In this document: piece after piece, positions 14,519 to 55,108 of the stretch
Position numbering within the stretch: position 1 is the first letter of the stretch
Layout of the letters: every line of letters starts with the position of its first letter
Source: an uncultured Cohaesibacter sp.
Lineage (GTDB): Bacteria; Pseudomonadota; Alphaproteobacteria; Rhizobiales; Cohaesibacteraceae
Assembly: GCF_963676275.1 (NCBI RefSeq)
Contig: NZ_OY781091.1
Coordinates: 558,001-622,000 of the forward strand
Direction of reading: 5' to 3'
Length of the DNA: 64,000 nucleotides
Position numbers and translations under genes: made by a program
The notes under the pieces: generated by a model
Seen by the model: the letters and a program-made list of their open reading frames with translations, nothing else
Databases searched by the model: none
What the model was told of the DNA's origin: nothing

Positions 14519-15538
14519 ATGAAAGCACTTGTATATGCCGGTCCCAACAAGGTTGAGGTCAGGGACGTTCCTGAACCCAAAGCGCAAGAAGGCGCAGTGA
14601 AAGTCAAGATGCTCTATTGCGGTCTGTGCGGCAGCGACATCGGCATCTATTCGGGCAAGCATCCACGCGCTCAGGCTCCTCTCATTCTGGGGCATGAATT
14701 TGTCGGTATTGTCGATGAAGCTCCTGCTGGTAGCAAGTTCGAAAAGGGCGACCGCGTCACCGCCTATCCGCTGATTTCTTGCGGTGAATGCTATCCCTGC
14801 AAGAATGGCACGCCCCATGTTTGCCAGACCCTGCATCTGCTGGGCATTGATGTCGACGGCGCCATGGCAGACCATTGCTGGGTTGACGAGAATGTTCTGG
14901 TCAAGGTGCCCGACGGGGTCTCCGACAAGCTGGCAGCACTGGCCGAGCCTCTCGCCGTTGTCGTGCGCACCCTGCATCAGGCCAATTTCAAGACCCTTGA
15001 TCGCTGTGTCGTCATGGGCGCGGGCCCGATCGGCATCCTGACCGCCATTCTGCTCAAGCATTCCGGAGCATCCCAGATCATCATCTCCGACATTGACGAA
15101 GGCCGTCTGGCTCTTTGCAGAGAGTTCGGTTTCGATGCGGTCAATGTCCGCGACAGCAATCTGGTCGATCACGTCAATGCGGCCACGGGCAATGTCGGCG
15201 CGGATATCGTCTTTGAATGTTCCGGTGTTGAAAGCGCGGCTCTGGAAGTGACCAAGCTGACCCGCGTTGGCGGCATGATCTGCATGACCGGTGTTCACAA
15301 GGCCCCTCATGCGGTCAATCTGATGGATCTCAACTTCAAGGAACAGACCATGGTCGGCAGCCGCGTCTACACCATGCGCGAATTCGCCGATTCCGTGCCT
15401 CTGCTGGCCAATATGGCTGAGGATCTGGAAAAGGTTATCTCACAGGTCGTCCCCCTCAGCGAAAGCGACAAGATCTTTGACATGGTTGCCGATCCCTCCC
15501 TGCGCACCATCAAGATTCTCGTCGATTGTCAGGCCTGA
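14519..15538 (+). CDS. Zinc-dependent sugar (alcohol) dehydrogenase, cluster 1
   Basis: 339 residues, medium-chain dehydrogenase family like L-idonate and sorbitol dehydrogenases. The catalytic zinc site is CGLCGSD with GHEFVG. The structural zinc cysteines are reduced: CGECYPCKNGTPHVC. The nucleotide fold is VVMGAGPIGILTAILL. It probably oxidises a secondary hydroxyl of a sugar acid, possibly C5 of a 2-keto-3-deoxy acid (inference). It is closely similar along its whole length to the enzyme at 51029-52051, both ending VDCQA. The ATG at 14519 matches the family start. The SDR gene follows after 16 bases. Confidence 0.85.
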   Translation: MKALVYAGPNKVEVRDVPEPKAQEGAVKVKMLYCGLCGSDIGIYSGKHPRAQAPLILGHEFVGIVDEAPAGSKFEKGDRVTAYPLISCGECYPCKNGTPHVCQTLHLLGIDVDGAMADHCWVDENVLVKVPDGVSDKLAALAEPLAVVVRTLHQANFKTLDRCVVMGAGPIGILTAILLKHSGASQIIISDIDEGRLALCREFGFDAVNVRDSNLVDHVNAATGNVGADIVFECSGVESAALEVTKLTRVGGMICMTGVHKAPHAVNLMDLNFKEQTMVGSRVYTMREFADSVPLLANMAEDLEKVISQVVPLSESDKIFDMVADPSLRTIKILVDCQA

Positions 15539-15554
15539 ATTCAAGGAAAACACA

Positions 15555-16313
15555 ATGTATAAACTGGATCTATCCGGCCAGAAGGCCATCGTCACCGGTG
15601 GCACACGCGGCCTCGGGCTTGGCATGGTCGAAGGTCTGCTGGAAGCAGGCGCCGAAGTGCTGATCGTTGGCTCAAGCGACAAGGCCGCTGAAGTGGCTGC
15701 CTCGCTCTGTAAAAACGGAGCCAAATGCCACGGATTGGCCATCGATCTGGCCGATGCGACCTCCCGCGCCGAAGGTTTTGACAAGGCTGTGACCATGCTC
15801 GGTGGTGAGTTGAATATTCTGGTCAATTGCGCCGGTGTGCAGAGCCGCCATCCTTCCGAAGAGTTTCCGCTGGAAGACTGGAACTGGGTGCTGGAGGTCA
15901 ATCTCAACGCCGTGTTCGACCTGTGCCAGCGCGCAGCCAATGTCATGCTGCCCAAGGGCCGGGGCAAGATCATCAATATCGCTTCGCTGCTCAGCTTCTT
16001 TGGCGGCTTCACCGTGCCGGCCTATGCCGCTTCCAAGGGCGGGGTGATGCAGTTGACCAAGGCCCTGTCCAACGAATGGGCCAGCAAGGGCATCAATGTC
16101 AACGCACTGGCTCCGGGCTACATGGCCACGGACATGAACACCGCTCTGTTGGCCGATGAGGGCCGCAACGCAGAAATCACCGCACGTATTCCAGCCAAGC
16201 GCTGGGGCAATGGCGAGGACATGAAAGGTCCCCTGGTGTTCCTCGCCTCCGCAGCATCCGATTACGTCCACGGTGTCACATTACCGGTAGATGGCGGCTA
16301 TCTGGGCCGCTAA
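15555..16313 (+). CDS. SDR oxidoreductase, KduD-like, cluster 1
   Basis: 252 residues, classical short-chain dehydrogenase. The cofactor turn is TGGTRGLGLGM, NCAG follows at the fourth strand, the catalytic Ser is in NIASLLSFFGGF, and Tyr/Lys in YAASKGG. The C-terminal VDGGYLGR is typical of 2-deoxy-gluconate (KduD) type enzymes, which interconvert 2,5-diketo-3-deoxygluconate and KDG. AAGGAAAA precedes the ATG. Paralogue of 50248-51006. It sits between the zinc dehydrogenase and the 2-hydroxyacid dehydrogenase with 16-base gaps on both sides, so all three are one operon. Confidence 0.87.
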   Translation: MYKLDLSGQKAIVTGGTRGLGLGMVEGLLEAGAEVLIVGSSDKAAEVAASLCKNGAKCHGLAIDLADATSRAEGFDKAVTMLGGELNILVNCAGVQSRHPSEEFPLEDWNWVLEVNLNAVFDLCQRAANVMLPKGRGKIINIASLLSFFGGFTVPAYAASKGGVMQLTKALSNEWASKGINVNALAPGYMATDMNTALLADEGRNAEITARIPAKRWGNGEDMKGPLVFLASAASDYVHGVTLPVDGGYLGR

Positions 16314-16329
16314 CCGAAGGAGTTTACGA

Positions 16330-17286
16330 ATGAAAATCGTCATTACCGATCTTGATCACGCTGATCAGAATATGGAGCGGGAAGTCTTTGCCAAGGCTGG
16401 TCTGGAATTCGCCCTGCTGGAATGCAGGACCGAGGACGATCTGATCAACCAGATCAAGGATTATGAGATTGCCCTCAACCAGTATGCCCCTTTCACCAAG
16501 CGTGTCTTTGACGCTCTGCCCAATCTCAAACAGATCATTCGCTATGGTGTTGGCGTGAATAATGTCGATCTTGAGGCTGCCAAGGAAGCCGGTGTGCAGG
16601 TTTGCAACGTGCCTGATTATGGCATGCATGAGGTTTCCGACCACGCCATTGCGCTCAGCCTTTCCATCATCCGCAAGGTGCCGAAAATGGACAAGGCCGT
16701 TCATGATGGCGTCTGGGATTTCACCGTGGCCGCTCCAATCCGCCGCTTCTGCGAAACCACGGTTGGTGTTGTTGGCCTTGGTCGCATCGGTCGCCTCTAT
16801 GCCAAGAAAATGCATGAGCTTGGTTTCAAGATTGTCGGCTATGACAAATTCTACAAGCCCAGTGCTGCCGATGGCACCGACTATATCAAGGGCGCGTCTC
16901 TTGATGAGGTGATTGCCGAGGCTGATATCTTCGCGCTTTTCTGCCCGGTCACGAATGACAATTTCCATATGATCGATGAGGCCGCAATCAGCCGCATGAA
17001 GAATGGCGTCTATATCGTCAACACCGCCCGCGGTGGATTGATCGATGAAGACGCCCTCGCAAAAGCCCTGAAGTCCGGCAAGATCGCCGGAGCTGCGCTT
17101 GATACCACCGAAATCGAACCTCTGCCGGAAAATAGCCCCTTGCGTGCTTTGGATAACTGCCAATTGACGCCGCATATGGCTTGGTATTCGGAAGATGCCG
17201 CTCTTGAGCTGAAACGTAAAGTTGCAGAAGAGGCGGTTCGTTTCTCAAATGGAGAAAGTATTAATTGGGGTTTGGTCCAACTTTAA
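16330..17286 (+). CDS. D-isomer-specific 2-hydroxyacid dehydrogenase, cluster 1
   Basis: 318 residues. It reduces a 2-keto acid or oxidises a D-2-hydroxy acid with NAD(P). The Rossmann turn is VGLGRIGRLYAKKM, the substrate Arg is in NTARGGLIDE, the Glu in EIEPLPENSPL, and the proton-relay His in LTPHMAWYSE. There is no ACT domain, so it is not a regulated SerA. Paralogue of 49261-50214. In this setting it may reduce a keto sugar acid or a C2-C3 breakdown product such as glyoxylate or hydroxypyruvate; this is open. A GAAGGAG ribosome-binding site precedes the start. Confidence 0.85.
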   Translation: MKIVITDLDHADQNMEREVFAKAGLEFALLECRTEDDLINQIKDYEIALNQYAPFTKRVFDALPNLKQIIRYGVGVNNVDLEAAKEAGVQVCNVPDYGMHEVSDHAIALSLSIIRKVPKMDKAVHDGVWDFTVAAPIRRFCETTVGVVGLGRIGRLYAKKMHELGFKIVGYDKFYKPSAADGTDYIKGASLDEVIAEADIFALFCPVTNDNFHMIDEAAISRMKNGVYIVNTARGGLIDEDALAKALKSGKIAGAALDTTEIEPLPENSPLRALDNCQLTPHMAWYSEDAALELKRKVAEEAVRFSNGESINWGLVQL

Positions 17287-17348: not shown

Positions 17349-18326
17349 ATGTCCATTAAAACACTTACACTTGCAGCTGTATTGGCTGTAGGTACAATCG
17401 TTTCCCCGGCAGTTGCAGAAACACTTCGTTTCTCAAACGTCACATCCGTATCGGGTAAGGACGCTGGCGTTGAATTCAAACGCATCGTGGAGGAAAAGAC
17501 CAACGGCTCTATCGAAGTCAAGCATTTCCCGGACAACCAGCTGGGCAACGACCGCGTCATCACTGAAAGCACCATCTTCGGTGACATCGATATCGGCGTC
17601 AGCTCCACCTCTCCGCTGGCTACCCTGTTCCCGGATCTCTATGCGTTCGACGCGCCTTTCCTCTTCCTCAGCCCGGAAGATGCCTATGCCAAGCTCGACG
17701 GTGAAACCGGTCAGGCAATCCTGAAGACCCTTGAGAAAAAAGGCCTGAAGGGTCTGGCTTTCTGGGAAAACGGCTTCCGTAACTTCACCAACTCCAAAAA
17801 GGCGGTCGCCGAGCCTTCCGACCTTTCGGGCATGAAAATCCGCACCATGGAAAACGACGTGCATCTGGCTGCATGGCGTGCCCTTGGTGCCAACCCAACC
17901 CCGATGGCTTTCTCCGAACTGTTCACCGCTCTGCAGCAGGGCACGGTTGACGGTCAGGAAAACCCGCTCGGCATCATCGACGGCAACCGTTTTCAGGAAG
18001 TTCAGAGCAACGTGTCTCTGACCCAGCATGTTTACACGCCATATATCGTGTTCATGAATCTGGATAAATTCAACTCCCTGAGCGACGTAGAGCAGGATGC
18101 GATCCTGACCGCCGCCAAGGAAACCACCACCTTCCAGCGCAACCGTTCTCAGGAACTGGAAAAAGAAATCCTGACCAAGATCAAGGATGACGGTGTGACG
18201 GTTACCGAACTGACCCCGGCTCAGAAATCAGAATGGCAGAAGATCGTTGTGGACGCGAAGATCTATGATCTCGTCAAATCCAAAATGGATCATCCTGAAT
18301 ATATGGATGCCTTGCTGAAGAAATAA
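17349..18326 (+). CDS. TRAP transporter substrate-binding protein (DctP family), cluster 1
   Basis: 325 residues with a signal peptide (MSIKTLTLAAVLAVGTI...PAVAE, cleavage near residue 24). Periplasmic. The conserved Arg that binds the ligand carboxylate lies in GMKIRTMEN, followed by LQQGTVDGQENPL, the family signature. The ligand is therefore almost certainly an organic or sugar acid. ACAGGAGGA precedes the ATG. A stable hairpin lies between this gene and the small permease gene, consistent with higher amounts of the binding protein. Confidence 0.92.
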   Translation: MSIKTLTLAAVLAVGTIVSPAVAETLRFSNVTSVSGKDAGVEFKRIVEEKTNGSIEVKHFPDNQLGNDRVITESTIFGDIDIGVSSTSPLATLFPDLYAFDAPFLFLSPEDAYAKLDGETGQAILKTLEKKGLKGLAFWENGFRNFTNSKKAVAEPSDLSGMKIRTMENDVHLAAWRALGANPTPMAFSELFTALQQGTVDGQENPLGIIDGNRFQEVQSNVSLTQHVYTPYIVFMNLDKFNSLSDVEQDAILTAAKETTTFQRNRSQELEKEILTKIKDDGVTVTELTPAQKSEWQKIVVDAKIYDLVKSKMDHPEYMDALLKK

Positions 18327-18344
18327 GCCTCATCGTCGCGAGTT

Positions 18345-18370
18345 GCGAGGGCTGGATTGCCAGTCCTCGC
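18345..18370 (+). other. Hairpin between TRAP binding-protein and permease genes, cluster 1
   Basis: GCGAGGGCTGG (18345-18355) pairs with CCAGTCCTCGC (18360-18370), 11 bp with one G-U pair and a 4-base loop, 18 bases after the dctP-type stop. No T-run. Likely protects the upstream message or dampens transcription into the permease genes. Confidence 0.65.
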
Positions 18371-18470
18371 GCATATGCTGCCCTTGATGCCGCGCTCCGG
18401 GTGGGCGAGAGCCTTGGCGCATCATATGTCTTGCGGCCACTGAATTCGATATTCGAAAAGGACCAAGTAG

Positions 18471-18965
18471 ATGACCATTCTACGCTTTTTGGACAAATAT
18501 TTCGAAATTTCAATCAGCGTCTTTCTCCTGCTCTTCATGACCGCGCTTATCGCGGTGCAGGTATTCATGCGGTATGTGATGGGGGAATCTCTGTCCTGGT
18601 CCGAAGAATTGGCGCGTTACGTTTTCATCTGGCTGATTTATCTGATGATCAGCTATAGCGCTCGTGAGATGAAGCATATCAAGATCGACGCCGCTCTGGG
18701 GCTCTTCCCCCAGTCATGGCAGCGTTGGGTGGTTATTGTCGGTGATCTGCTGTTCCTCGCTTTCGCTCTCTTCATCGTCAAGACGACCTACACGCTCGTT
18801 CTCAAGCAGATGATGCTTGACCAGCGCTCGACCGCTCTGGCGATCCCGCTCTGGATGATCTATGCCGCGCCCGGGGTTGGCTTCTTTCTGGCTTCGATCA
18901 GACAGGTGCAAACCATCATCTGGCGCCTGCGCAATCCTGACAAAACCAATATCGAGGAGTTCTAA
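18471..18965 (+). CDS. TRAP transporter small permease (DctQ family), cluster 1
   Basis: 164 residues with four predicted membrane helices: about 14-34, 46-65, 88-108 and 125-145. The motif SWSEELARYVFIWLIYLM is the DctQ signature. It forms the membrane unit with the DctM protein, whose gene begins three bases after its stop. The ATG at 18471 lies 144 bases past the binding-protein gene, the gap being filled by the hairpin at 18345. Confidence 0.9.
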   Translation: MTILRFLDKYFEISISVFLLLFMTALIAVQVFMRYVMGESLSWSEELARYVFIWLIYLMISYSAREMKHIKIDAALGLFPQSWQRWVVIVGDLLFLAFALFIVKTTYTLVLKQMMLDQRSTALAIPLWMIYAAPGVGFFLASIRQVQTIIWRLRNPDKTNIEEF

Positions 18966-18968
18966 GGC

Positions 18969-20252
18969 ATGGTCGCTACAGTCCTCTTTACAAGCCTTGT
19001 CCTGTTCCTCATCCTCAATGTCCCTGTTGGCATTGCCATTGGTCTGGCCTCGGCTGCGGCGGCGCTCGTCGCAGAAGCGCTCTCGCCCAACTATATTTCC
19101 CAGCAGCTGATTGCCGGTACTGACAGCTTTCCGATCATGGCGATCCCGCTGTTCATTCTGGCCGGTGACCTGATGGGGGCAGGCGGTGTGTCGCGCCGTA
19201 TCCTTGATGTCGCCAACGTCTTTTTCGGCCGCGTGACCGGTGGTCTGGCCATCGTCACCGTTGCCGTCTGCATGTTCTTTGCTGCCGTATCCGGCTCCGG
19301 CCCGGCCACTGTGGCCGCCGTCGGCTCCATGGTCATTCCGACCATGTTGGAGAAGGGCTATTCCAAATCCTTCACACTGGCTCTGGTGGCAACCGCTGGA
19401 TCGATTGGCGTCATCATCCCGCCATCCATCCCGATGGTGATCTTCGGTGTCGCAACGGGTACCTCCATTTCCAACATGTTCATGGCTGGTATTGTTCCGG
19501 GCTTCCTGATCGGCTTCGCGCTGATGGGCTGGAGCTATTATTATGCCAAGAAACAAGGGATTGCCGGGGTTGAAGGCAAGTTTGACTGCCACGTTGCCGC
19601 CAAGCTGGTATGGGAAGCAAAATGGGCGCTTCTCAACCCGATCATCATTCTGGGTGGCATCTATGCGGGTATCTTCACCCCGACGGAAGCCGCCGCCGTG
19701 GCAGCCGTCTATGCCTTGCTTTGCGGTCTGGTGCTCTATCGCGAGATCAGCCTGAAGCATTTGCTCAAGACGGTGGCGCGTTCCTGCTCCACCACCGGTA
19801 CGACGATGGTCATTCTGGGCTGCGCAACGGCCTTTGCCAAGATCCTGACCATTGAGCAGATCCCGGTTCAGGTGGCCGATCTGATGACGACCATTTCGGA
19901 CAATCCGATCATCATTCTGATGATCATCAACGTCCTGCTGCTGTTCGTCGGCTGTGTCATGGATACCACGCCAGCCATTCTGGTGCTGTCTCCGATCCTG
20001 TTCCCTGTGGCCACTTCCATGGGTGTTGATCCGATCCATTTCGGCATCATCATGGTCGTCAACCTTGCGATCGGTTTCATCACGCCTCCTTTGGGTATCA
20101 ACCTGTTCGTGGCGGCAAGGGTCGGCAACGCCCAGCTCGGCACAGTGGTGCGAGGCATTCTGCCTTTCATTGCGATCATGATCATTCTCCTCTTGATCAT
20201 ATCCTACGTACCACCCGTCTCGATCGGCATCTTCAGCCTGTTGGGTCGATAA
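18969..20252 (+). CDS. TRAP transporter large permease (DctM family), cluster 1
   Basis: 427 residues, about 12 membrane helices. It couples sodium entry to uptake of the acid. Family motifs include FPIMAIPLFILAGDLM, the glycine-rich AVSGSGPATVAAVGSMVIP, IGVIIPPSIPMV and the C-terminal GFITPPLGINLFVA. The start is ATG three bases after the small permease stop. It is followed by a terminator-like hairpin before dgoA. Confidence 0.93.
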   Translation: MVATVLFTSLVLFLILNVPVGIAIGLASAAAALVAEALSPNYISQQLIAGTDSFPIMAIPLFILAGDLMGAGGVSRRILDVANVFFGRVTGGLAIVTVAVCMFFAAVSGSGPATVAAVGSMVIPTMLEKGYSKSFTLALVATAGSIGVIIPPSIPMVIFGVATGTSISNMFMAGIVPGFLIGFALMGWSYYYAKKQGIAGVEGKFDCHVAAKLVWEAKWALLNPIIILGGIYAGIFTPTEAAAVAAVYALLCGLVLYREISLKHLLKTVARSCSTTGTTMVILGCATAFAKILTIEQIPVQVADLMTTISDNPIIILMIINVLLLFVGCVMDTTPAILVLSPILFPVATSMGVDPIHFGIIMVVNLAIGFITPPLGINLFVAARVGNAQLGTVVRGILPFIAIMIILLLIISYVPPVSIGIFSLLGR

Positions 20253-20326: not shown

Positions 20327-20956
20327 ATGTCCTTTGAACAGTTTGTCGGGCAATGCCCTCTTGTGGCCATTTTGCGTGGTCTGGCGCCGGAAGAGGCTCT
20401 TGGAATGGGCCAGTGCCTGATTGATTCAGGCTTCACCATGATAGAGGTTCCGCTCAATTCTCCTCGACCCTTTGAAAGCATCTCGATCTTGCAGGAAAGC
20501 TTTGGCCGCCGTGCCCTGATTGGTGCTGGCACCGTGTTGAGCAGGGAAGCCGTTGATGGCGTGGCAGCCGCAGGAGGCAAGCTGATCGTCATGCCTCATT
20601 GCAACACCGATGTGATTTCCTATGCCAAGTCTCTTGGCCTCTATTGTGTACCCGGTATCGCGACGCCAACGGAAGCTTTTGCCGCGCTTGATGCCGGAGC
20701 GGACGCGCTTAAACTCTTCCCTGCAGAAAATGCGGCTCCCGCAGTGGTCAAGGCCATGCTTGCAGTCCTGCCCAAAGCCACGCGTATCCTCCCAGTGGGC
20801 GGGATTGCACCTGACAATATGGCTGATTACTGGGCTGCGGGAGCCGCCGGGTTCGGCTTGGGCAGTGCTCTTTACAAGCCCGGCATGCCAACCGAACAGG
20901 TTGGAGCCAATGCCCGCGCCTTCATTGAAGCCATTGAGGGCCTAAAGCAGAATTGA
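20327..20956 (+). CDS. dgoA: 2-dehydro-3-deoxy-6-phosphogalactonate aldolase
   Basis: 209 residues, class I aldolase of the KDPG/KDPGal family. It splits the DgoK product into pyruvate and glyceraldehyde-3-phosphate. The start VAILRGLAPEEAL, catalytic Glu in IEVPLNSP, GAGTVL, and Schiff-base Lys in ALKLFPAE are all present; IEVPLNSP favours the galactonate-type (DgoA) over Eda. It closes the pathway begun by dgoK upstream; the L-fuconate dehydratase gene follows after 63 bases. Confidence 0.92.
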   Translation: MSFEQFVGQCPLVAILRGLAPEEALGMGQCLIDSGFTMIEVPLNSPRPFESISILQESFGRRALIGAGTVLSREAVDGVAAAGGKLIVMPHCNTDVISYAKSLGLYCVPGIATPTEAFAALDAGADALKLFPAENAAPAVVKAMLAVLPKATRILPVGGIAPDNMADYWAAGAAGFGLGSALYKPGMPTEQVGANARAFIEAIEGLKQN

Positions 20957-35888: not shown

Positions 35889-35924
35889 AAGCCTCCCGCC
35901 CACAAAAACATGAGGCGAGAGGCT
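35889..35924 (-). terminator. Hairpin after TonB-dependent receptor gene
   Basis: AAGCCTC (35889-35895) with GAGGCTT (35918-35924) and inner CGCC (35897-35900) with GGCG (35913-35916) form a two-part stem 24 bases past the receptor stop. A short T-run follows on the minus strand. Confidence 0.6.
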
Positions 35925-35947
35925 TGCGTCACAGTCGCAGCTCCGGA

Positions 35948-38002: not shown

Positions 38003-38076
38003 TGGAAAACAACGAGCCTTTGTGTCTGGAAAAGAGGGTGCCAAGCCTTCGGGTCATATTTCTGCCCGAAATATAT

Positions 38077-38095
38077 CTTGACTTTCACAGTCAAG
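38077..38095. promoter_or_regulatory. Palindromic operator candidate between receptor and AraC genes
   Basis: CTTGACT-TTCAC-AGTCAAG, perfect 7-base arms with a 5-base centre, 75 bases before the receptor start and 141 before the AraC start. A good candidate for the binding site of the AraC regulator or of an iron repressor. It does not match the classical Fur box. Confidence 0.5.
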
Positions 38096-38235
38096 TTAAA
38101 GGAAATATGCGCTTGATGTAAATTTCGAAGACTTGCGTCCATGCGCCAATTTTTTGCTCAAAGGCGTCAAATTCGGCGGGGTTTCCCGCTTGCTGCAGAG
38201 TGCATTTGGCTTTTGCATCTTGATCGGAGACGAGA

Positions 38236-42308: not shown

Positions 42309-42310
42309 TG

Positions 42311-44040: not shown

Positions 44041-44198
44041 GATATTGGACCTTCATCAAATGATTTGGACTGGAGCGGTTACCGGTTGCTTGGCTGGGAT
44101 GCGGGTCGCACAGCCTGTGGTCTCAATAAGACCGTTTCAGGCCCCATGCCGACACCATGCCGATTGTCGGCGCGGTTTGCCTGCCAACCGGAAAGGAA

Positions 44199-44217
44199 CC
44201 GGGATCAATGATCCCGG
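44199..44217. other. Palindromic hairpin between sugar-binding protein and permease genes
   Basis: CCGGGATCA and TGATCCCGG flank a single central base (44199-44217). As RNA it forms a 7-bp stem with a 5-base loop, 23 bases past the binding-protein stop. No T-run. Probably limits read-through or protects the upstream message. Confidence 0.6.
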
Positions 44218-44240
44218 CTCTCATTCACCAATATGGGCTC

Positions 44241-45482: not shown

Positions 45483-45612
45483 CGTGTTCTCCTCAGTTTG
45501 AACTCGGCGCATCTGTGCCGAGGATTCTCGACGTCGTCAAAAAGCTTGTCCGACGTCACATAGGGTGATTTGGCCATGGTGGGAGGGGCCGATAGCTCTT
45601 GATTGGCTATTT

Positions 45613-47796: not shown

Positions 47797-48639
47797 TCAG
47801 CGCAGTTCGTTGATCGGAATGACGTCCATGTCGTTGAAGGTCTGGTTCTCGCCACCCATCGCCCAGATGAAGGTATAGGCTGAGGTGCCGCAACCGGCAT
47901 GGATGCTCCAGGAAGGGCTGATGACCGCATCGCCATCATGCATCATGATATGGCGGGTCTGATCGCCTTCACCCATCATATGAAACACCGCCTGATCTTC
48001 GGGCAGGTTGAAATAGGTGTAGATTTCCATGCGGCGCTCATGAGTGTGAGCGGGCATGGTGTTCCAGACATTGCCCGGCTCAAGCTGCGTCAGGCCCATG
48101 GACAGCTGGCAGGTTTCCAGCACGTCCGGATGGATAAACTGGTTGATGACGCGTTTGTTGCAGTTTGCCTGATCGCCCAGAGGCACCTTCTTGGCATCGG
48201 CCATTTTCAGGAAGGTGGTCTTGCAGCTCTTGTGCGCCGGAGCGCTGACCATATAGAATTTGGCAGGCTTGCTGGCGTCAGCGCTCTGGAAGGTCACTTC
48301 CTTCGTGCCGCGCGTGATATAGAGGCAATCCTGAAAGCCCAGCTCATAGCTCTCGCCATCGGCGATGATCGTGCCGGTCTCTCCCAGATTGAAGATGCCG
48401 ATTTCGCGACGCTCCAGAATATAGTCGGTACCGAAGGTCTTCATGCATTCGATGCCCTTGTCCAGCGGAACGGTTTCGCTGACAGGCATGCAGCCGAAGG
48501 TCACCATGCGATCCACATGGCTGTAAACCGCCTGAATGGTATCGGCAACATAAAGATTGGTGATCTTGAATTCCTCGGCGACCTCTTCGGTGGTCATCCG
48601 TTTGAAATGTTTCTGATTGACGGAATAACGGATATCCAT
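47797..48639 (-). CDS. kduI: 5-keto-4-deoxyuronate isomerase
   Basis: 280 residues, usual KduI length. It converts 5-keto-4-deoxyuronate, made from unsaturated uronates of pectin, ulvan or glycosaminoglycan type, to 2,5-diketo-3-deoxygluconate. Metal ligands are visible in MPAHTHERRMEIYTYF and in the C-terminal SIHAGCGTSAYTFIW. GGAGATGCCGC precedes the ATG at 48639. Last gene of cluster 2; its product is the expected substrate of the KduD-like SDR encoded two genes upstream. Confidence 0.95.
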   Translation of the reverse strand: MDIRYSVNQKHFKRMTTEEVAEEFKITNLYVADTIQAVYSHVDRMVTFGCMPVSETVPLDKGIECMKTFGTDYILERREIGIFNLGETGTIIADGESYELGFQDCLYITRGTKEVTFQSADASKPAKFYMVSAPAHKSCKTTFLKMADAKKVPLGDQANCNKRVINQFIHPDVLETCQLSMGLTQLEPGNVWNTMPAHTHERRMEIYTYFNLPEDQAVFHMMGEGDQTRHIMMHDGDAVISPSWSIHAGCGTSAYTFIWAMGGENQTFNDMDVIPINELR

Positions 48640-48691: not shown

Positions 48692-49162
48692 TCAGGAGGA
48701 GGCAATCTCGATCTTGACGACGACTTTTCTTACATGGGATGGCTTTGCGGAACGGCATCCCGGGCGATGTATATCCCACGGGTAGAAGACTGCATAGCTT
48801 CCCTGAGACAGAAACAGCATGCTTTCTTGCGCCGGTTTGTCAAAGAAGCAGACATCCTTGTCCTCAAGGAGATCTTCAACCATCTCTGCCCCCTTGCTGA
48901 GGGGAGCAATGCCGATCAGCTCTTCGCCCTTGACCACATATTGAATGTCAATATAGCGTTTGTGGGCTTCGGGTTTTACGTCTTCGGCGGGTTTGGGATC
49001 ATAATCCTGCACCATGGCAAAAAGGCGATCCCCATCAATATCTGTGCGCCCTGTCGGCAGCGCCATCAGATCGGTCTTTTCGAGGAAGTGAAGTCCTTCA
49101 AGGATATTTTCCGGCAGTGTATTTGATGCTTCGGACAGATTTTCAAGGCAACCATAAATCAT
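48692..49162 (-). CDS. YhcH/YjgK/YiaL family protein
   Basis: 156 residues, normal family length. A cupin-like fold with VKPEAHKRYIDIQYVVKGEELIG and YPWDIHRPGC holding the metal-binding His and Glu residues. Family members include sialic-acid anomerase (NanQ) and EbgC; in uronate gene clusters they are thought to help ring opening or mutarotation. Here it lies between kduI and the 2-hydroxyacid dehydrogenase gene, which suggests handling of the cyclic form of 5-keto-4-deoxyuronate (inference). Confidence 0.87.
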   Translation of the reverse strand: MIYGCLENLSEASNTLPENILEGLHFLEKTDLMALPTGRTDIDGDRLFAMVQDYDPKPAEDVKPEAHKRYIDIQYVVKGEELIGIAPLSKGAEMVEDLLEDKDVCFFDKPAQESMLFLSQGSYAVFYPWDIHRPGCRSAKPSHVRKVVVKIEIASS

Positions 49163-49260: not shown

Positions 49261-50214
49261 TCAGAGCTGATTGACCGGATAATGGACAGGTTCACCCTTG
49301 GCAAACCGCGCAGCTTCCTCCGCGACCTTGCGTTTGAGCTCGGCCGATGATTCTTCGGAATAGTAAGCCATGTGCGGAGTAATGAAGACATTGTCCATAT
49401 CGAGCAATGGCGACTGCTTGTCGATTGGCTCGGTGGAAATGCAGTCAAGGGCAGCACCGCCAAGGGCGCCGGATTTGAGCTGCTCGGCCAGAGCCGCCTC
49501 ATCAATGATGCCGCCACGAGCGGTATTGATGATGATGGCTCCTGCCTTCATGCTCTTTAGTCTGTCTGCATCAATCAGGTTGCGGGTTTCCTCATTGAGC
49601 GGACAATGCACGGAAACAACGTCGCTGCTGTTCAGAAGCACTTCCAGACTGACCTGCTTGACACCCGGAATTCTGTTCTCGAGATCTTTACGGTTGAGGT
49701 CACAGACCAGCACTTCCTTGCAAAGCGGCAACACCTTTTTGGCAAACAGCCCGCCGATGCGGCCAACGCCCAAAACGCCGATCGTCATCTCGGAAATGCG
49801 ACGGATGGGAGCCATCTTGCGGAAATCCCAGTCCCTGTTGCGGGTGTGGCTTACCGTTGCCGGGATCTTCCTGATAAGGGCCATCATCAGCGCGAGGGCA
49901 TGGTCGGACACTTCATGCATGCCATAATCCGGCACGTTGCAGACCTGAACGCCGTGGCGGGTTGCCGCTTCCAGATCGACATTGTCGACGCCGACGCCAT
50001 AGCGGACAATCTGCTTGACTTCGGGCAGGGCGGTGAAAACGCGATCATCGAACTTGCCATACTGGTTGAGAATGATGTTGCCACCCTTGCATTGGGCGAT
50101 CACTTCATCCTCTGTGCGCGCGGCCATATGGGTGAAATCCAGACCGGCCTTGGCGAGCACGTCTTTTTCGATCTGCATCGACTCGTGGTCGCAATCAGAA
50201 ACGATGACTTTCAT
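49261..50214 (-). CDS. D-isomer-specific 2-hydroxyacid dehydrogenase, cluster 2
   Basis: 317 residues. Cofactor turn VLGVGRIGGLFAKKVL, substrate Arg in NTARGGIIDE, Glu in ISTEPIDKQSPL, His in FITPHMAYYSEE. It is a paralogue of the cluster 1 enzyme: shared stretches include IRYGVGV, VCNVPDYGMHEVSDHA and LKRKVAEEA. The ATG at 50214 is preferred to an upstream TTG. Substrate unknown; its repeated presence next to the ADH and SDR argues for a role in the same pathway. Confidence 0.85.
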   Translation of the reverse strand: MKVIVSDCDHESMQIEKDVLAKAGLDFTHMAARTEDEVIAQCKGGNIILNQYGKFDDRVFTALPEVKQIVRYGVGVDNVDLEAATRHGVQVCNVPDYGMHEVSDHALALMMALIRKIPATVSHTRNRDWDFRKMAPIRRISEMTIGVLGVGRIGGLFAKKVLPLCKEVLVCDLNRKDLENRIPGVKQVSLEVLLNSSDVVSVHCPLNEETRNLIDADRLKSMKAGAIIINTARGGIIDEAALAEQLKSGALGGAALDCISTEPIDKQSPLLDMDNVFITPHMAYYSEESSAELKRKVAEEAARFAKGEPVHYPVNQL

Positions 50215-50247
50215 GAGATTATCTTTCACTTTCAATTTAGGACGCCA

Positions 50248-51006
50248 CTATCGGCCCAGATATCCGCCGTCGACCGGAATGATGGTGCCATTGACATAGT
50301 CCGAAGCGCCCGATGCGAGAAACAGCAGCGGCCCCTTCATGTCTTCCGGCGTACCCCAGCGATGGGTCGGGATGCGGGCAGAGATTTCCGCATTGCGTCC
50401 CTCGTCGGCCAGCAGCGCGGTGTTCATGTCGGTTGCCATATAGCCCGGAGCCAATGCATTGATGCAGAGGCCCTGACCGGCCCATTCATTGGCCAGTGCC
50501 TTGGTCAACTGGGCGATGCCGCCCTTGCTGGCTGCATAGGCCGGAACGGTGAAGCCGCCAAAGAAGCTCAGCAGCGAGGCGATATTGACGATCTTGCCGC
50601 GGCCCTTGGGCAACATCACGCGCGCGGCGCGCTGGCACAGATCGAACACGGCGGTCAGGTTGACCTCCAGAACCGCATTCCAGTCATCAAGCGGGAATTC
50701 CTCGCTCTTGTGACGCTTCTGCACGCCTGCTGCGGTAACCAGAATATCAAGGTCGCCCCCCAGCAGATCGAGAGCCTTGGCAAAGCCTTCTTCGCGCGCC
50801 TTGGCGCTTGCCAGATCGACGATCACGCCATGGCAGGCAAAACCGCGATCACAGAATTCCTTGGCAACGTCATTGACGCTGGCGCCAGAGCCGAAAATGA
50901 CAACCTCAACGCCAGCTTCGAGCAACACTTCCGCCATGCCCTTGCCAAGGCCGCGGGTGCCGCCGGTTACAATGGCCTTCTGGCCTTTTACATCATATGG
51001 ATTCAT
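50248..51006 (-). CDS. SDR oxidoreductase, KduD-like, cluster 2
   Basis: 252 residues. Cofactor turn TGGTRGLGKGM, TAAGVQ, Ser in NIASLLSFFGGF, YAASKGG catalytic pair, C-terminal VDGGYLGR. It is the expected KduD: reduction of 2,5-diketo-3-deoxygluconate, the KduI product, to KDG. It is highly similar to 15555-16313, including FPLDDWN/FPLEDWN and the whole APGYMATDMNTALLADEGRN stretch. It lies between the ADH and the 2-hydroxyacid dehydrogenase genes, as in cluster 1. Confidence 0.88.
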   Translation of the reverse strand: MNPYDVKGQKAIVTGGTRGLGKGMAEVLLEAGVEVVIFGSGASVNDVAKEFCDRGFACHGVIVDLASAKAREEGFAKALDLLGGDLDILVTAAGVQKRHKSEEFPLDDWNAVLEVNLTAVFDLCQRAARVMLPKGRGKIVNIASLLSFFGGFTVPAYAASKGGIAQLTKALANEWAGQGLCINALAPGYMATDMNTALLADEGRNAEISARIPTHRWGTPEDMKGPLLFLASGASDYVNGTIIPVDGGYLGR

Positions 51007-51028
51007 CGTTTCGATCTCTCTTGAATTC

Positions 51029-52051
51029 TTATGCCTGACAATCCACCAGAACCTTGACCGTGTTGACGGCCGGATCTGCGATCATGTCAAAAATGCCTTC
51101 CGACTGGGTCAGCGGCACGATCTGGGTCACCACTTTTTCAAGATCTTCAGCAATGGTCTGCGCATAGGCGACGGAAATTTCGAACTCGTTCTTGGTATAG
51201 ACGCGGGAGCCGATCAGGATCTGTTCCTTGAAATTCATGTCGCGCAAATCGACCGGACGCTGTTCCTTGTGAATGCCGGTCATGCAGATGGTGCCGCCGA
51301 TGCGGGCCAGCTTGGTCATTTCGACAGCCGAGCTTGGAGCGCCGGAGCATTCAAAGACGATGTCGACGCCCTCGCCATTGGTGCTGTCATTGATATAATC
51401 CACCAGGTTGGTGTCCTTGACATTGACCGTTTCCAGACCGAGTTCCTTGCAGACATCGAGGCGAGCCTGATCGACATCGGAGATGACGATGCGGGAGGCG
51501 CCCGAATGCTTGAGCACGATCGCGGTCAACACGCCGATCGGACCGGCACCGGTAACAACGGTTGAATCCAGAAGATTGAATTTGGCCTGATGCAGCGAGC
51601 GGACGACAACCGCAAGAGGCTCTACAAGAGCGGCGATCTTGTCGCTCATGCTGTCGGGTACCTTGAACAATACATCTTCATCGATCCAGGCATGGTCGGC
51701 GATGCCGCCATCCATATCAATGCCGATCAGCTTGAGGGTCTTGCAGACATGAGGATGGCCGGTGCGGCAGGCAAGGCATCCGCCGCATGAAATGAGCGGA
51801 TAGGCAACAACCCTGTCGCCGGGGGCAAGACGCCCTGATCCACCCTGAATTTCTTCGATGGTTCCCACAAATTCATGTCCAAGCACCAGCGGTGCGGTTG
51901 CACGCGGATGCTTGCCGGCAAAAATGCCGATATCGGAGCCGCAGATGCCGCAATAATGCATCTTGACCTTGGCGGCGCCGGGGCGTCCCTTTGGCTCTGG
52001 AACATCTTGAACTTCAACCTTGTGCGGGGCTGTGTAGACTAGCGCTTTCAT
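51029..52051 (-). CDS. Zinc-dependent sugar (alcohol) dehydrogenase, cluster 2
   Basis: 340 residues. Zinc site CGICGSD with GHEFVG; structural-type cysteines CGGCLACRTGHPHVC; cofactor turn VTGAGPIGVLTAIVL. It is the paralogue of 14519-15538, equal length within one residue and the same C-terminus (VDCQA). A KduI-KduD route to KDG does not need it, so it must either feed a second substrate into the pathway or act on C5 of an L-configured acid. AAGGAGAAAAAA precedes the ATG. Confidence 0.86.
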   Translation of the reverse strand: MKALVYTAPHKVEVQDVPEPKGRPGAAKVKMHYCGICGSDIGIFAGKHPRATAPLVLGHEFVGTIEEIQGGSGRLAPGDRVVAYPLISCGGCLACRTGHPHVCKTLKLIGIDMDGGIADHAWIDEDVLFKVPDSMSDKIAALVEPLAVVVRSLHQAKFNLLDSTVVTGAGPIGVLTAIVLKHSGASRIVISDVDQARLDVCKELGLETVNVKDTNLVDYINDSTNGEGVDIVFECSGAPSSAVEMTKLARIGGTICMTGIHKEQRPVDLRDMNFKEQILIGSRVYTKNEFEISVAYAQTIAEDLEKVVTQIVPLTQSEGIFDMIADPAVNTVKVLVDCQA

Positions 52052-52219: not shown

Positions 52220-53527
52220 CTAGTTCATCAGGCCTGCAAGCCTTGGCAGCGCGAGCGAGAGGTCGGGCACGAATGTCACCACCATCAACAGGGCTGTCAG
52301 GATCAGGAAGTAGGGGAGCAGAGGTTTGACAACCTGCTCGATCTTCAAATTCGCTATTCGGCATCCCACAAACAGGATCGGACCCACCGGTGGCGTTATG
52401 GTGCCGATGCAGAGGTTGAAGACCATCAGCACGCCGAAATGCACCACGTCAAATCCCAGAGACAGGGCAATCGGCAGGAAGATCGGCGCGAAAATCAGGA
52501 TCGCCGGGGTCGGATCCATCACGCAACCCAGCAGCAGCATGACAAAGTTCATGATGATCATGATCAGGATCGGGCTGTCGGTGACGCTGAGCAGCGAGCT
52601 TGCGATGATGTTCGGGATCTTGGCAAAGGCCATGATCCAGCCCATGATGGCGGAAACACCGATCATGAAGATGATCATCGCGGTGGTCTTGACGGTCGCC
52701 AGCAGGAAGCCCGGAATCATGTCCACCGTGATGGTGCGATAGATGAAGGACAGGATCGTGACATAGACAACGGCAATGCAGCTGGCTTCCGTTGGCGTGA
52801 AGATGCCCGAGATGATGCCGCCAACCACTACGACAATCAGCAGCAGCGATGGCACCGCCTCAATGGTGATGTTCAGATTCTGCTTGAAGCTGCCGAGCTT
52901 TTCCGACTTGTAACCAGCCTTGCGGGCAAAGAACATGGCCGGAACCATGCAGCCCAGACCCCACAGGATACCGGGGCCGTAACCGGCAACGAACAGGGCC
53001 GCGACCGATGCGCCGCCACTGGCCAGCGAATAGATGATAAAGGTGTTGCTGGGCGGGATCAGCATGCCCGCCGGAGCCGAGGCGATGTTGGCGGCGGCGG
53101 CAATGTTGGGATCATAGCCGTCATTCTTCTGCTGCGGGCCAATGGCCCCGCCAATGGCTGCCGCTGCGGCAACACCGGAACCACTGATCGCACCAAACAG
53201 CATGTTTGCCACGATATTGGTCTGGATGAGGGCGCCCGGTATGAACCATATCACCGCCTTGGCGAAATTGATCAGCCTTTGCGCTATGCCGCCGTTGGTC
53301 ATGATGATACCGGCAAGAACAAAGAAGGGGATCGCTAGCAGGGAGAAAGAGTTGATGCCGGCAAAAATCCGCTGTGCTGCGGTGATTGCCATGCGGTCGA
53401 AACCGAAGATGGTGGTCATGGCTGCGACGGAGCCAATGCCCATGGCGATACTGATCGGCACACCAATTGCTAACAGAATTGGTATGGAGATGAGCATGAT
53501 AAGGCCGATATCTGCTGCGTTTGCCAC
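52220..53527 (-). CDS. TRAP transporter large permease (DctM family), cluster 2
   Basis: 435 residues, about 12 membrane helices. Motifs: SLLAIPFFVLAGIIM, AISGSGVAAAAAIGGAIGP, AGMLIPPSNTFIIYS, GCVMDPTPAILIFAPIFLP and GTITPPVGPILFVG. The start is a GTG 4 bases after the small permease stop, with GAGGG at a good distance. The sequence is clearly more distant from the cluster 1 transporter than the enzymes are from each other. Confidence 0.92.
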   Translation of the reverse strand: MANAADIGLIMLISIPILLAIGVPISIAMGIGSVAAMTTIFGFDRMAITAAQRIFAGINSFSLLAIPFFVLAGIIMTNGGIAQRLINFAKAVIWFIPGALIQTNIVANMLFGAISGSGVAAAAAIGGAIGPQQKNDGYDPNIAAAANIASAPAGMLIPPSNTFIIYSLASGGASVAALFVAGYGPGILWGLGCMVPAMFFARKAGYKSEKLGSFKQNLNITIEAVPSLLLIVVVVGGIISGIFTPTEASCIAVVYVTILSFIYRTITVDMIPGFLLATVKTTAMIIFMIGVSAIMGWIMAFAKIPNIIASSLLSVTDSPILIMIIMNFVMLLLGCVMDPTPAILIFAPIFLPIALSLGFDVVHFGVLMVFNLCIGTITPPVGPILFVGCRIANLKIEQVVKPLLPYFLILTALLMVVTFVPDLSLALPRLAGLMN

Positions 53528-53531
53528 TGGA

Positions 53532-54041
53532 TCAGCCCTCCATCTTGCTGGTTTGGCCCTGACCCGTGCCGGTCAGGGATTTGAAATCGATCCAAATATT
53601 ATAGAAGCAGTAGAACACCGAGAATGCCCCGCTCAGCGGCAATGCCAGATAGATCTGCCCCGTCTTGATGAACGGGATCGCTGCGTTTGTCTGGCGCATG
53701 GTCCGGTCAACGGCATCGATACCGCCAATAAGCAGGATGCTCGTGACAAAACCGAGTATCAAAAGGCTGATGATGATCTGAAAGATTGTCTGGTTCCTGG
53801 CCGACATCATGTCGAGGCCGAGCTCAATGGCCATATGGCCCTTCTCGCCGAACAGCAGGGCTGCGCCCAACAGAACGGCCCATACAAACATGATCTTGGC
53901 GAGCTCTTCAGACACAGCGCCCGAGGCGTTGAAGAAGAAACGTCCTATAACCTGCCAGGTTACGGCGATCACCAGAAGTCCACACAGGACAATACAGGTT
54001 GTCGCCAAAATTCGATCTGCCCAGCGCTTGATCGCGTGCAT
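53532..54041 (-). CDS. TRAP transporter small permease (DctQ family), cluster 2
   Basis: 169 residues, four membrane helices, with SEELAKIMFVWAVLLGAALLF as the DctQ signature. The ATG at 54041 follows GGGAGGTAGTTTCG. Only four bases separate it from the large permease gene. Confidence 0.88.
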   Translation of the reverse strand: MHAIKRWADRILATTCIVLCGLLVIAVTWQVIGRFFFNASGAVSEELAKIMFVWAVLLGAALLFGEKGHMAIELGLDMMSARNQTIFQIIISLLILGFVTSILLIGGIDAVDRTMRQTNAAIPFIKTGQIYLALPLSGAFSVFYCFYNIWIDFKSLTGTGQGQTSKMEG

Positions 54042-54072
54042 CGAAACTACCTCCCTCGCGCCAGAATGAGGC

Positions 54073-54090
54073 CCGGATGCAAGCACCCGG
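54073..54090 (-). other. Hairpin between TRAP binding-protein and permease genes, cluster 2
   Basis: On the minus strand CCGGGTGC and GCATCCGG form an 8-bp stem with one G-U pair in the 74-base gap between the two genes. It matches in position the hairpins at 18345 and 44199. Confidence 0.5.
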
Positions 54091-54115
54091 CGCCTCTTGG
54101 CTTTGGTTTTGCGGA

Positions 54116-55108
54116 TTATTCGCCGTGGATCTGTTTGTAGATGGTCTTGGTGACCTCACTGGCAAGCTTCTTCTCAGTGAGAGGTTTCACCGCATCACGG
54201 AAAGCTTTCAGATCAACCTGGTTGAATTTGGCACCAGCTTTCTCTGCATCGGCTTTTGCAACAGCTACAGCTTCAGCGAAGGACTCATATTCATAGTCGA
54301 CAGCCTTTGGCAGCTCTTCAGCGAAGATCTGTTTCACATCATCGGGCAGATCATTATAGATGTCGGCGCTCATGATGAGATAGTCAGGCATCATCAGATG
54401 CTGGGTGTAGGAATAGTAAGGTGCGATTTCGCTGTGCTTGAGGGAGGAGTAGACGATTTCGTTATTCTCGCCACCGTCAAGAACGCCGGTCTGGATCGCG
54501 GTGTAAACTTCGCCCTGACCCATTGCGATGCCGTTGCCGCCCATCAGATTCATCATTTCGATGTTGGTGTCAGACTGCATCACGCGGATTTTGTCGCCGC
54601 CCATATCGGCAGGTTTCTCAACCGGACCGGACTTGCGATAGACGTTGCGAACACCGCCGTGGAAAGCGGCCAGAACGACAATGCCCTGATCTTCAACGGA
54701 ATGATAAAGATCGCCCACGATTGCAGGATCATTGACGACCTGACGCTGCTGGTCAACGCTGTCGAACATGTAAGGCAGGTTGAAGATAACGAAATCCGGG
54801 TTCCAGCTTTCCAGAAGGCTGGCGGCAGCCAGAGACATGGCAATGGTACCGGTCTGGGTCATCTCGATGGCTTCTTTCTGGGCACCGAGCAACTCGTTGG
54901 GATAAACCTCGACCTTGTATTCGCCATTGGTGCGAGCGGCCAGAGCTTCACCGAATTTCTGCATTGCCTTGAACTGCGGATGAGTTTCCGGCTGGTTGAA
55001 AGCAACCTGAAATACAGTTTCAGCCATCACAGGGGTAGCGCTGTATACTGCAGAAAGAGCCAGAGCTCCGACACCTGCAAATGCAGCCATTGCACTAAAA
55101 TGTTTCAT
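54116..55108 (-). CDS. TRAP transporter substrate-binding protein (DctP family), cluster 2
   Basis: 330 residues with a signal peptide (AAFAGVGALALSAVYSATPVMAE, cleavage near 30). The ligand-binding Arg is in GGDKIRVMQSD, followed by YTAIQTGVLDGGENN. As in all DctP proteins the ligand is a carboxylate, here probably an unsaturated uronate or keto-deoxy acid given KduI. It differs enough from the cluster 1 protein to suggest another ligand. CGGAGGAATTA precedes the ATG. Confidence 0.92.
   Translation of the reverse strand: MKHFSAMAAFAGVGALALSAVYSATPVMAETVFQVAFNQPETHPQFKAMQKFGEALAARTNGEYKVEVYPNELLGAQKEAIEMTQTGTIAMSLAAASLLESWNPDFVIFNLPYMFDSVDQQRQVVNDPAIVGDLYHSVEDQGIVVLAAFHGGVRNVYRKSGPVEKPADMGGDKIRVMQSDTNIEMMNLMGGNGIAMGQGEVYTAIQTGVLDGGENNEIVYSSLKHSEIAPYYSYTQHLMMPDYLIMSADIYNDLPDDVKQIFAEELPKAVDYEYESFAEAVAVAKADAEKAGAKFNQVDLKAFRDAVKPLTEKKLASEVTKTIYKQIHGE

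What the first reader, a model, noticed from the sequence alone, without database searches (positions are those of the whole stretch)
14519..55108. Two copies of an ADH-SDR-2-hydroxyacid-dehydrogenase-TRAP cassette in different pathways
The zinc dehydrogenase, SDR and 2-hydroxyacid dehydrogenase at 14519-17286 each have a close paralogue at 49261-52051, in the same gene order (ADH, SDR, 2-HADH), in both cases next to a TRAP transporter. The enzymes are visibly more alike than the transporters. Cluster 1 adds dgoK/dgoA/fucD and an IclR regulator; cluster 2 adds kduI, a YhcH protein and a GntR regulator. This points to a mobile enzymatic module reused behind different importers, so the three enzymes most likely act one after another.
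Basis: partly seen in the sequence, partly recalled or inferred. Interest (0 to 1): 0.7.

Follow-up and report, generated by a model that had tools for sequence, protein, structure and literature searches.

The report
Sugar-acid C5-flipping enzyme cassette, twice
A marine bacterium carries two separately acquired copies of the same three-enzyme cassette, which probably turns mirror-image-type sugar acids into a form its central metabolism can burn, each copy fed by a different importer.

Summary
In this Cohaesibacter genome a zinc ADH, SDR and 2-hydroxyacid dehydrogenase (2-HADH) occur twice in the same order, 65/74/50% identical against 28/28/35% for the TRAP subunits, and each pair is by far the closest match in the genome. 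The subfamilies are rare but linked: 19 of 19 close 2-HADHs found in 397 genomes of the order lie one SDR away from the ADH. The triplet also occurs beside sugar-type ABC importers in two other lineages. The copies are no local duplication: cassette 2 groups with Fluviibacterium, and one Cohaesibacter clade is rejected (AU p 0.0003). Carriers form one Cohaesibacter clade, so 'mobile' holds only for the past. In Fluviibacterium the triplet (80/83/59%) follows a 3,6-anhydro-L-galactonate cycloisomerase, pointing to ADH and SDR as the known couple that inverts C5 of L-KDGal to give D-KDG; KduI of cluster 2 should make the same diketo intermediate. That ADH and SDR act in sequence is well supported by context; where the 2-HADH acts is open. 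Nothing has been assayed.

The parts
14519..15538 (+). ADH1: zinc alcohol dehydrogenase, predicted 5-dehydrogenase of an L-configured sugar acid
   Evidence: 65% to ADH2; C37, H59, E60, E144 and C89, C92, C95, C103 invariant in 9 rows; below every NCBIfam cut-off listed
15555..16313 (+). SDR1: KduD-like short-chain dehydrogenase, predicted 5-keto reductase
   Evidence: 74% to SDR2; best NCBIfam TIGR01832 KduD 294.4 bits, cut-off 338.85 not reached
16330..17286 (+). HADH1: PGDH/CtBP-like D-2-hydroxyacid dehydrogenase
   Evidence: 50% to HADH2; R240, E269, H288 (HADH2 numbering) invariant in 7 rows
12643..13485 (+). IclR-family regulator of cluster 1
13482..14426 (+). DgoK-family 2-keto-3-deoxy-galactonokinase
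   Evidence: Pfam PF05035 306 bits; no NCBIfam match
17349..20252 (+). TRAP transporter 1 (DctP 17349-18326, DctQ 18471-18965, DctM 18969-20252)
   Evidence: 54-71% to the TRAP genes beside the clostridial ADH
20327..20956 (+). DgoA-family 2-keto-3-deoxy-6-phosphogalactonate aldolase
   Evidence: NF006600 291 bits, cut-off 207 passed
21020..22330 (+). L-fuconate-dehydratase-type (FucD/ENOSF1) sugar-acid dehydratase
   Evidence: E 9e-163 to 4a35, 4e-157 to 2hne
10709..11818 (-). KdgK-like (PfkB) KDG kinase 0.8 kb from the IclR gene of cluster 1; ORF start uncertain (profile match begins at residue 54)
   Evidence: NF052444 KdgK 297 bits, cut-off 400 not reached; Pfam PfkB
51029..52051 (-). ADH2
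50248..51006 (-). SDR2 (KduD-like; 276.1 bits, cut-off not reached)
49261..50214 (-). HADH2
48692..49162 (-). YhcH/YjgK/YiaL-family protein (possible anomerase)
   Evidence: TIGR00022 139.8 bits, cut-off 45.5; the anomerase equivalog cut-off of 160 not reached
47797..48639 (-). KduI, 5-keto-4-deoxyuronate isomerase
   Evidence: NF002091 417.5 bits, cut-off 250; start
52220..55108 (-). TRAP transporter 2 (DctM 52220-53527, DctQ 53532-54086, DctP 54116-55108)
   Evidence: DctP's best solved match is 4n91, E 4e-65, a D-glucuronate-bound protein
55170..55937 (-). GntR-family regulator of cluster 2

Best explanation
Each cassette is a stereochemical adaptor for sugar acids. The zinc ADH oxidises the C5 hydroxyl of an acid with the L configuration at C5 (most likely 2-keto-3-deoxy-L-galactonate, L-KDGal, or the aldonate before it). 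The KduD-like SDR reduces the 5-ketone from the other face. Together they invert C5 and deliver 2-keto-3-deoxy-D-gluconate (D-KDG) or its D-aldonate precursor to a KDG-type kinase and KDPG/KDPGal aldolase. In cluster 1, TRAP1 imports an aldonate-like acid and the FucD-type dehydratase makes the 2-keto-3-deoxy acid (before or after inversion); DgoK and DgoA finish. In cluster 2, TRAP2 imports a hexuronate-like acid and KduI supplies the same 2,5-diketo-3-deoxy intermediate that the ADH would make, so both routes meet at the SDR. The 2-HADH acts on one of the 2-oxo acids of the same pathway, step and direction unknown. Shown: sequence relationships, gene order, linkage, trees, neighbours. Inferred: every substrate and the order of reactions.
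For: Fluviibacterium L035 carries ADH 80%, SDR 83%, 2-HADH 59% directly behind an enolase-superfamily gene matching 3,6-anhydro-L-galactonate cycloisomerase 5xd7 at E 5e-167, with an aldehyde dehydrogenase and a sugar-type ABC importer upstream; that class of cycloisomerase makes L-KDGal (PMC11219438 and PMC5943477, passages). L090 (cycloisomerase match E 1e-159) and L091 (its gene 71% identical to L090's) have cycloisomerase, ADH, SDR and aldehyde dehydrogenase in a row, L091 also an agarase-CBM gene, with more distant ADH (35-38%) and SDR (45-49%). The sequence L-KDGal 5-dehydrogenase, diketo reductase, KDG kinase is in print (PMC5943477, passages, citing Lee et al. 2014). C5 inversion by a dehydrogenase/reductase pair ahead of a dehydratase, KDGal kinase and KDPGal aldolase is in print for Paracoccus 43P (described in PMC12632266, parts 1-2 of 6 read). 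The SDRs' best family is KduD; KduI passes its cut-off; a KdgK-like kinase lies 0.8 kb from cluster 1. DctP2's best solved match 4n91 is D-glucuronate-bound; of the seven contact residues listed in PMC7660916, six could be placed by motif and all six are shared. DctP1's second-best solved match 7bbr is reported bound to 2-keto-3-deoxy-D-gluconate (PMC11668362 passage). The clostridial relatives L039/L040 link related ADH, SDR and TRAP1 with KDPG-type aldolases, and L039 also with DgoK and a galactonate dehydratase.
Against: No enzyme here has been assayed. ADH and SDR reach no NCBIfam cut-off in the listed matches (for the SDRs the best 25 of 218-219 were shown). The Cohaesibacter genome has no close cycloisomerase (best 30%, E 8e-28), so the upstream step differs from Fluviibacterium's. 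DgoK/DgoA in cluster 1 suggest D-KDGal, while a FucD-type dehydratase should give the other C4 series (D-KDG or L-KDGal; recalled stereochemistry); this is not reconciled. L039 has a galactonate dehydratase, which also implies the KDGal series. The adaptor reading does not need the 2-HADH, yet it is linked in 19 of 19 cases found in the order. Cluster 2 has no dehydratase and its KduI is not constant: here and in four other genomes it is downstream, in three a different KduI (52-58%) lies upstream, in G555 none was found in the 18 kb read. G662's triplet showed no recognised dehydratase or kinase in what was scanned.
Confidence: 0.62

Rival explanations
1. Ketoaldonate route: all three act in sequence, 2-HADH first. 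The 2-HADH reduces a 2-ketoaldonate (such as 2-keto-L-gulonate to L-idonate), the ADH oxidises C5 (L-idonate to 5-keto-D-gluconate), the SDR reduces it to a D-aldonate (D-gluconate). YhcH would open the cyclic 2-keto acid for the 2-HADH. (Not exclusive of the best explanation: they differ mainly in the 2-HADH.)
For: The same three enzyme classes do this in Aspergillus niger: GluC/GluD (D-2-hydroxyacid dehydrogenase family), GluE (alcohol dehydrogenase), GluF (SDR) (PMC4870679, PMC5306355, PMC5814732, passages). In G427 a 2-HADH (44%), SDR (35%) and ADH (29%) form a similar three-gene set, and that ADH scores best, below cut-off (177.5 against 469 bits), against L-idonate 5-dehydrogenase. YhcH follows the 2-HADH in cluster 2 and in Consotaella; YhcH of E. 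coli is an anomerase that supplies the open form of a 2-keto acid (PMC8141875, passages). It accounts for the constant 2-HADH.
Against: In Fluviibacterium the triplet follows a step that already yields a 2-keto-3-deoxy acid, where a 2-ketoaldonate reductase has no obvious place. The 2-HADHs score below the GhrB cut-off (125.9 and 132.4 against 492) and nearer PGDH (222.2 and 240.1 bits, also below cut-off).
Confidence: 0.25
2. The 2-HADH is a passenger or a redox sink: only ADH and SDR belong to the pathway, and the 2-HADH reduces pyruvate, glyoxylate or hydroxypyruvate to balance NAD(H).
For: No 2-HADH was found beside the distant ADH-SDR pairs in L090, L091, G725, the Alloyangia plasmid and the Agrobacterium plasmid. 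The 2-HADH pair is the least conserved of the three (50%).
Against: 19 of 19 close 2-HADHs found in the order sit one SDR away from the ADH, in five lineages overall; clostridial operons carry other 2-HADHs (31-38%).
Confidence: 0.3
3. The two copies arose by duplication inside Cohaesibacter and merely diverged.
For: Same gene order, both in one genome, and always together in the same 9 of 18 genomes of the genus.
Against: Cassette 2 groups with Fluviibacterium (100/99 in the concatenated tree; 96/91 for SDR and 94/98 for 2-HADH; the ADH tree does not resolve it), and holding all 18 Cohaesibacter rows together is rejected, AU p 0.0003. The shared 9 of 18 is explained by one clade.
Confidence: 0.04

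Closest known systems
End of the L-AHG pathway as given for Pseudoalteromonas atlantica and Paraglaciecola hydrolytica: L-KDGal 5-dehydrogenase and 2,5-diketo 5-dehydrogenase (PMC5943477, passages)
   Same: Dehydrogenase then reductase invert C5 of L-KDGal to give D-KDG; ADH-SDR pair beside a cycloisomerase, as in L035, L090 and L091
   Different: No 2-HADH found in L090/L091; no close cycloisomerase in the window's genome; the published sequences were not in hand
Paracoccus laeviglucosivorans 43P LgnH/LgnI/LgnE/LgnF/LgnG (described in the introduction of PMC12632266)
   Same: C5 epimerisation through a 5-ketone, then dehydratase, KDGal kinase and KDPGal aldolase; same functional set as cluster 1
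   Different: D-idonate dehydratase is placed in the UxaA/GarD superfamily (PMC6336799 passage), not FucD; sequences not compared; the word hydroxyacid does not occur in PMC12632266's main text
Aspergillus niger GluC/GluD-GluE-GluF and E. coli IdnD-IdnO (PMC4870679, PMC5306355, PMC5814732, passages)
   Same: 2-HADH, alcohol dehydrogenase and SDR acting in sequence on sugar acids
   Different: gluD and gluE are reported as clustered, linkage of the others not checked; sequences not compared; end product D-gluconate
KduI-KduD pathway of 5-keto-4-deoxyuronate (recalled)
   Same: KduI passes its cut-off; SDR nearest KduD; shared intermediate 2,5-diketo-3-deoxygluconate
   Different: SDR below the KduD cut-off; an ADH and a 2-HADH are added

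Membership tests
KduD (TIGR01832) | Score above the curated cut-off of 338.85 bits | tested here: not met
   294.4 and 276.1 bits
KduD (TIGR01832) | SDR catalytic Asn, Ser, Tyr, Lys | tested here: met
   N116, S144, Y157, K161 invariant in 9 rows; roles recalled
L-KDGal 5-dehydrogenase / diketo reductase pair | ADH and SDR genes adjacent to an L-KDGal-forming gene | tested here: inconclusive
   Met in Fluviibacterium, L090 and L091; in the window only a FucD-type dehydratase in cluster 1 and KduI in cluster 2
L-KDGal 5-dehydrogenase / diketo reductase pair | Activity on L-KDGal and on the diketo intermediate | not testable with these tools
   needs an assay
KduI (NF002091) | Score above cut-off 250 | tested here: met
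   417.5 bits
L-idonate 5-dehydrogenase (NF007375) | Score above cut-off 469 | tested here: not met
   157.7 and 137.9 bits
GhrB 2-ketoaldonate reductase (NF011938) | Score above cut-off 492 | tested here: not met
   125.9 and 132.4 bits
D-2-hydroxyacid dehydrogenase superfamily | Catalytic Arg-Glu-His | tested here: met
   R240, E269, H288 invariant in 7 rows; roles recalled
Zinc-dependent ADH | Catalytic and structural zinc ligands | tested here: met
   C37, H59, E60, E144 and C89, C92, C95, C103 invariant in 9 rows; roles recalled
L-fuconate dehydratase (FucD/ENOSF1) | Full-length similarity to solved members | tested here: met
   E 9e-163 to 4a35 over residues 3-433, 4e-157 to 2hne over 3-432; substrate untested
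YhcH N-acetylneuraminate anomerase (NF040884) | Score above cut-off 160 | tested here: not met
   112.5 bits; the broader TIGR00022 is met

The most novel reading that the evidence does not exclude
The triplet is a portable stereochemical adaptor in which the 2-HADH carries out a third, undescribed step on the same carbon chain (for example reducing a 2-ketoaldonate, or oxidising an imported 3-deoxyaldonate to its 2-keto form). One three-gene block would then let unrelated bacteria plug any importer for an L-series sugar acid into the Entner-Doudoroff pathway.
Probability: 0.28. Interest if true: 0.55.

Novelty: new variant of a known kind. Interest (0 to 1): 0.38.

Why it matters
It offers testable functions for two ADH, two SDR and two 2-HADH genes that reach no specific family cut-off here, and for two TRAP systems. 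It also suggests how catabolic pathways can be built by swapping importers and first steps around a fixed stereo-inverting core. The unexplained, tightly linked 2-HADH is a clear target for assay.

Tried and rejected
In-genus duplication was rejected. Functional interdependence of the two cassettes, suggested by 9 genomes with both and 9 with neither, is explained by one clade on an rpoB tree of 14 of the 18 genomes; the 4 without an rpoB match are all non-carriers. The first rpoB tree held two wrong-frame rows and was discarded. The direct agar-sugar reading for this genome was rejected because it has no close cycloisomerase. The plasmid search with ADH2 found only distant ADHs (41-50%, 3 records at E 1e-70), and the one with DctP1 found none at E 1e-90, so nothing supports recent plasmid transfer. 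The genome-contig scan used two short N-terminal patterns only (12 relatives from 66 stretches) and under-samples. The profile searches scored at most five candidates per genome. No structure prediction was run. G725 has two ADH places of equal score 15.6 kb apart, one beside a truncated SDR; not pursued, possibly an assembly effect.

Rows dropped: the rows G725, L090, L091, Alloyangia, the Agrobacterium plasmid, G427 and G622 were left out, and the clostridial rows have no 2-HADH columns there. The count of 21 of 23 loci leaves out the Alloyangia ADH (50-55% identical, no 2-HADH found), which falls just under the 56% line.
Full report
The window lies at 558,001-622,000 of a 5.03-Mb single-contig genome. 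Genomes of its genus include Cohaesibacter haloalkalitolerans (the contig of L033 has the same length and match position as G529) and C. marisflavi (L034 has the same match position as G710), so the host is taken to be a Cohaesibacter.

Observation. Both clusters exist as described. Likely starts are 2-HADH1 16330, 2-HADH2 50214 (or a TTG at 50235) and KduI 48639. ADH, SDR and 2-HADH are separated by 13-33 bases in both clusters (which counted HADH1 from 16327). The three pairs are 65, 74 and 50% identical; the TRAP subunits 28, 28 and 35%. Each pair is each other's nearest match in the genome by a wide margin.

Linkage. With an ADH profile, 1 of 385 genomes sampled across the class had a match at E 1e-85, the window's own. 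In 397 genomes of the order 11 matched at 1e-70: nine Cohaesibacter with two copies each, G662 with one, and G725 with two distant ones (257 bits). A 2-HADH profile on 397 genomes of the order gave 19 matches above 560 bits, two in each of those nine Cohaesibacter and one in G662, each about one SDR gene away from an ADH place; the next match in any genome was 344 bits. In the phylum sample 3 of 398 genomes matched at 1e-75, the window's own and two distant ones (283 and 272 bits, L090 and L091). These searches scored at most five candidates per genome. The triplet is also present in Fluviibacterium (L035) and Consotaella (L036). Among ADHs at least 56% identical to the window's that I examined, the triplet is intact in 21 of 23 loci (18 Cohaesibacter, G662, Fluviibacterium, Consotaella), five lineages if the two Cohaesibacter cassettes count apart. 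The two clostridial loci have the SDR on the opposite strand and other 2-HADHs (31-38%) further along. The Alloyangia plasmid ADH (50-55%) falls just below that line and has no 2-HADH nearby.

Varying neighbours. Cassette 1: IclR, DgoK, TRAP1, DgoA, FucD type. Cassette 2: GntR, TRAP2, YhcH, and a KduI whose position varies among the nine genomes. Fluviibacterium: sugar-type ABC importer, aldehyde dehydrogenase, 3,6-anhydro-L-galactonate cycloisomerase. G662: sugar-type ABC importer and a DUF4432 gene. Consotaella: IclR, DgoK, YhcH; an EamA-type transporter gene and TRAP-like genes lie several kb off on the other strand, and no importer was identified directly beside the triplet. Anaerotignum: galactonate dehydratase, FGGY kinase, TRAP1 relatives, DgoK, two aldolases, a 2-HADH. 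Chakrabartyella: FGGY kinase, TRAP1 relatives, two aldolase-like genes (by blastp only), a 6PGD-family gene, two 2-HADHs.

History. Single-gene trees of 29 ADH, 30 SDR and 25 2-HADH rows each hold cassette 1 and cassette 2 of Cohaesibacter as separate groups; SDR and 2-HADH put Fluviibacterium with cassette 2, and ADH leaves it open. The concatenated tree of 23 rows gives Fluviibacterium plus cassette 2 with 100/99 support and rejects one Cohaesibacter clade (delta lnL 32.2, AU p 0.0003). The rpoB tree of 14 genomes puts the nine carriers on one side of a 100/100 branch. The simplest history is one gain of each cassette on that branch, from different sources, then vertical descent; the tree itself cannot tell gain from loss. 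In the window the triplets are about 32 kb apart; elsewhere they lie far apart, for example 1.6 Mb in G696.

Function. The strongest lead is Fluviibacterium: close relatives of all three enzymes follow the gene for the class of enzyme that makes L-KDGal (E 5e-167 to a solved cycloisomerase; product from passages of PMC11219438 and PMC5943477). More distant ADH-SDR pairs sit in the same position in L090 and L091. The published sequence from L-KDGal is a 5-dehydrogenase, then a second 5-dehydrogenase giving KDG, then a kinase (PMC5943477, passages). The Paracoccus 43P pathway described in PMC12632266 does the equivalent one step earlier, on the aldonate. Cluster 1 contains what such a route needs: importer, dehydratase, inversion pair, kinase, aldolase, with a KdgK-like kinase nearby. 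FucD-type enzymes from Xanthomonas and humans are named in PMC6336799 as acting on D-arabinonate; their use of L-galactonate and D-altronate is recalled. Cluster 2's KduI makes the diketo intermediate that a KduD-type SDR reduces (established pathway, recalled). DctP2 resembles D-glucuronate-bound 4n91, and six of six contact residues that could be placed are shared; the seventh, Glu74 of the published list, could not be placed. DctP1's relatives include 7bbr, reported with bound 2-keto-3-deoxy-D-gluconate, with the source's caution that co-purified ligands may not be native.

The 2-HADH. Its place is unresolved. It could reduce a 2-ketoaldonate first, as GluC/GluD do ahead of GluE and GluF in A. 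niger, with YhcH opening the cyclic acid. The three-gene set in G427 (2-HADH 44%, SDR 35%, ADH 29%) suggests that the three enzyme classes have come together more than once and argues against a mere passenger. Against that order, the Fluviibacterium locus leaves no obvious place for a 2-ketoaldonate reductase, and no 2-HADH was found beside five more distant ADH-SDR pairs.

Limits. All substrates are inferred. The C4 stereochemistry implied by DgoK/DgoA and by FucD is not reconciled. Ten literature searches (listings and abstracts seen, passages read of some) in an open-licence library showed no description of this triplet, which does not prove that none exists.

Noticed in passing
window 58164-60681 (- strand): Autoinducer-2 kinase equivalog (818.8 bits, cut-off 528) next to an LsrR-like regulator (324 bits, cut-off 486 not reached): an lsr-type locus.
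   Followed up: no
window 34137-39141: Enterochelin-esterase-like protein, TonB-dependent receptor and AraC regulator together: a likely siderophore uptake locus between the two cassettes.
   Followed up: no
window 40333-45512 (- strand): UgpA-like ABC permease, SIS-domain protein and a weakly matched PfkB-type kinase, with a protein at 44241-45512 that looks by eye like a sugar-binding protein (not scanned): another carbohydrate locus between the cassettes.
   Followed up: no
L083 (G427) 6614-9489: Three-gene set 2-HADH-SDR-ADH with distant ADH and SDR, near genes for an aldehyde dehydrogenase, xylulokinase, HAD phosphatase, ribose-5-phosphate isomerase and a sugar-binding protein.
   Followed up: partly
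L069 9189-11008 and L070 2598-9002 (plasmids of Alloyangia and Agrobacterium): Distant ADH (50% and 41% to ADH2) and an SDR near a tripartite tricarboxylate transporter and a gene annotated as 2,4'-dihydroxyacetophenone dioxygenase family: a third importer class near an ADH-SDR pair.
   Followed up: partly
YhcH of cluster 2, window 48692-49162: The window's YhcH is only 63-68% identical to the YhcH at the same place in other Cohaesibacter, while the other genes of cluster 2 (KduI aside) are 82-97% identical: faster change or replacement.
   Followed up: no
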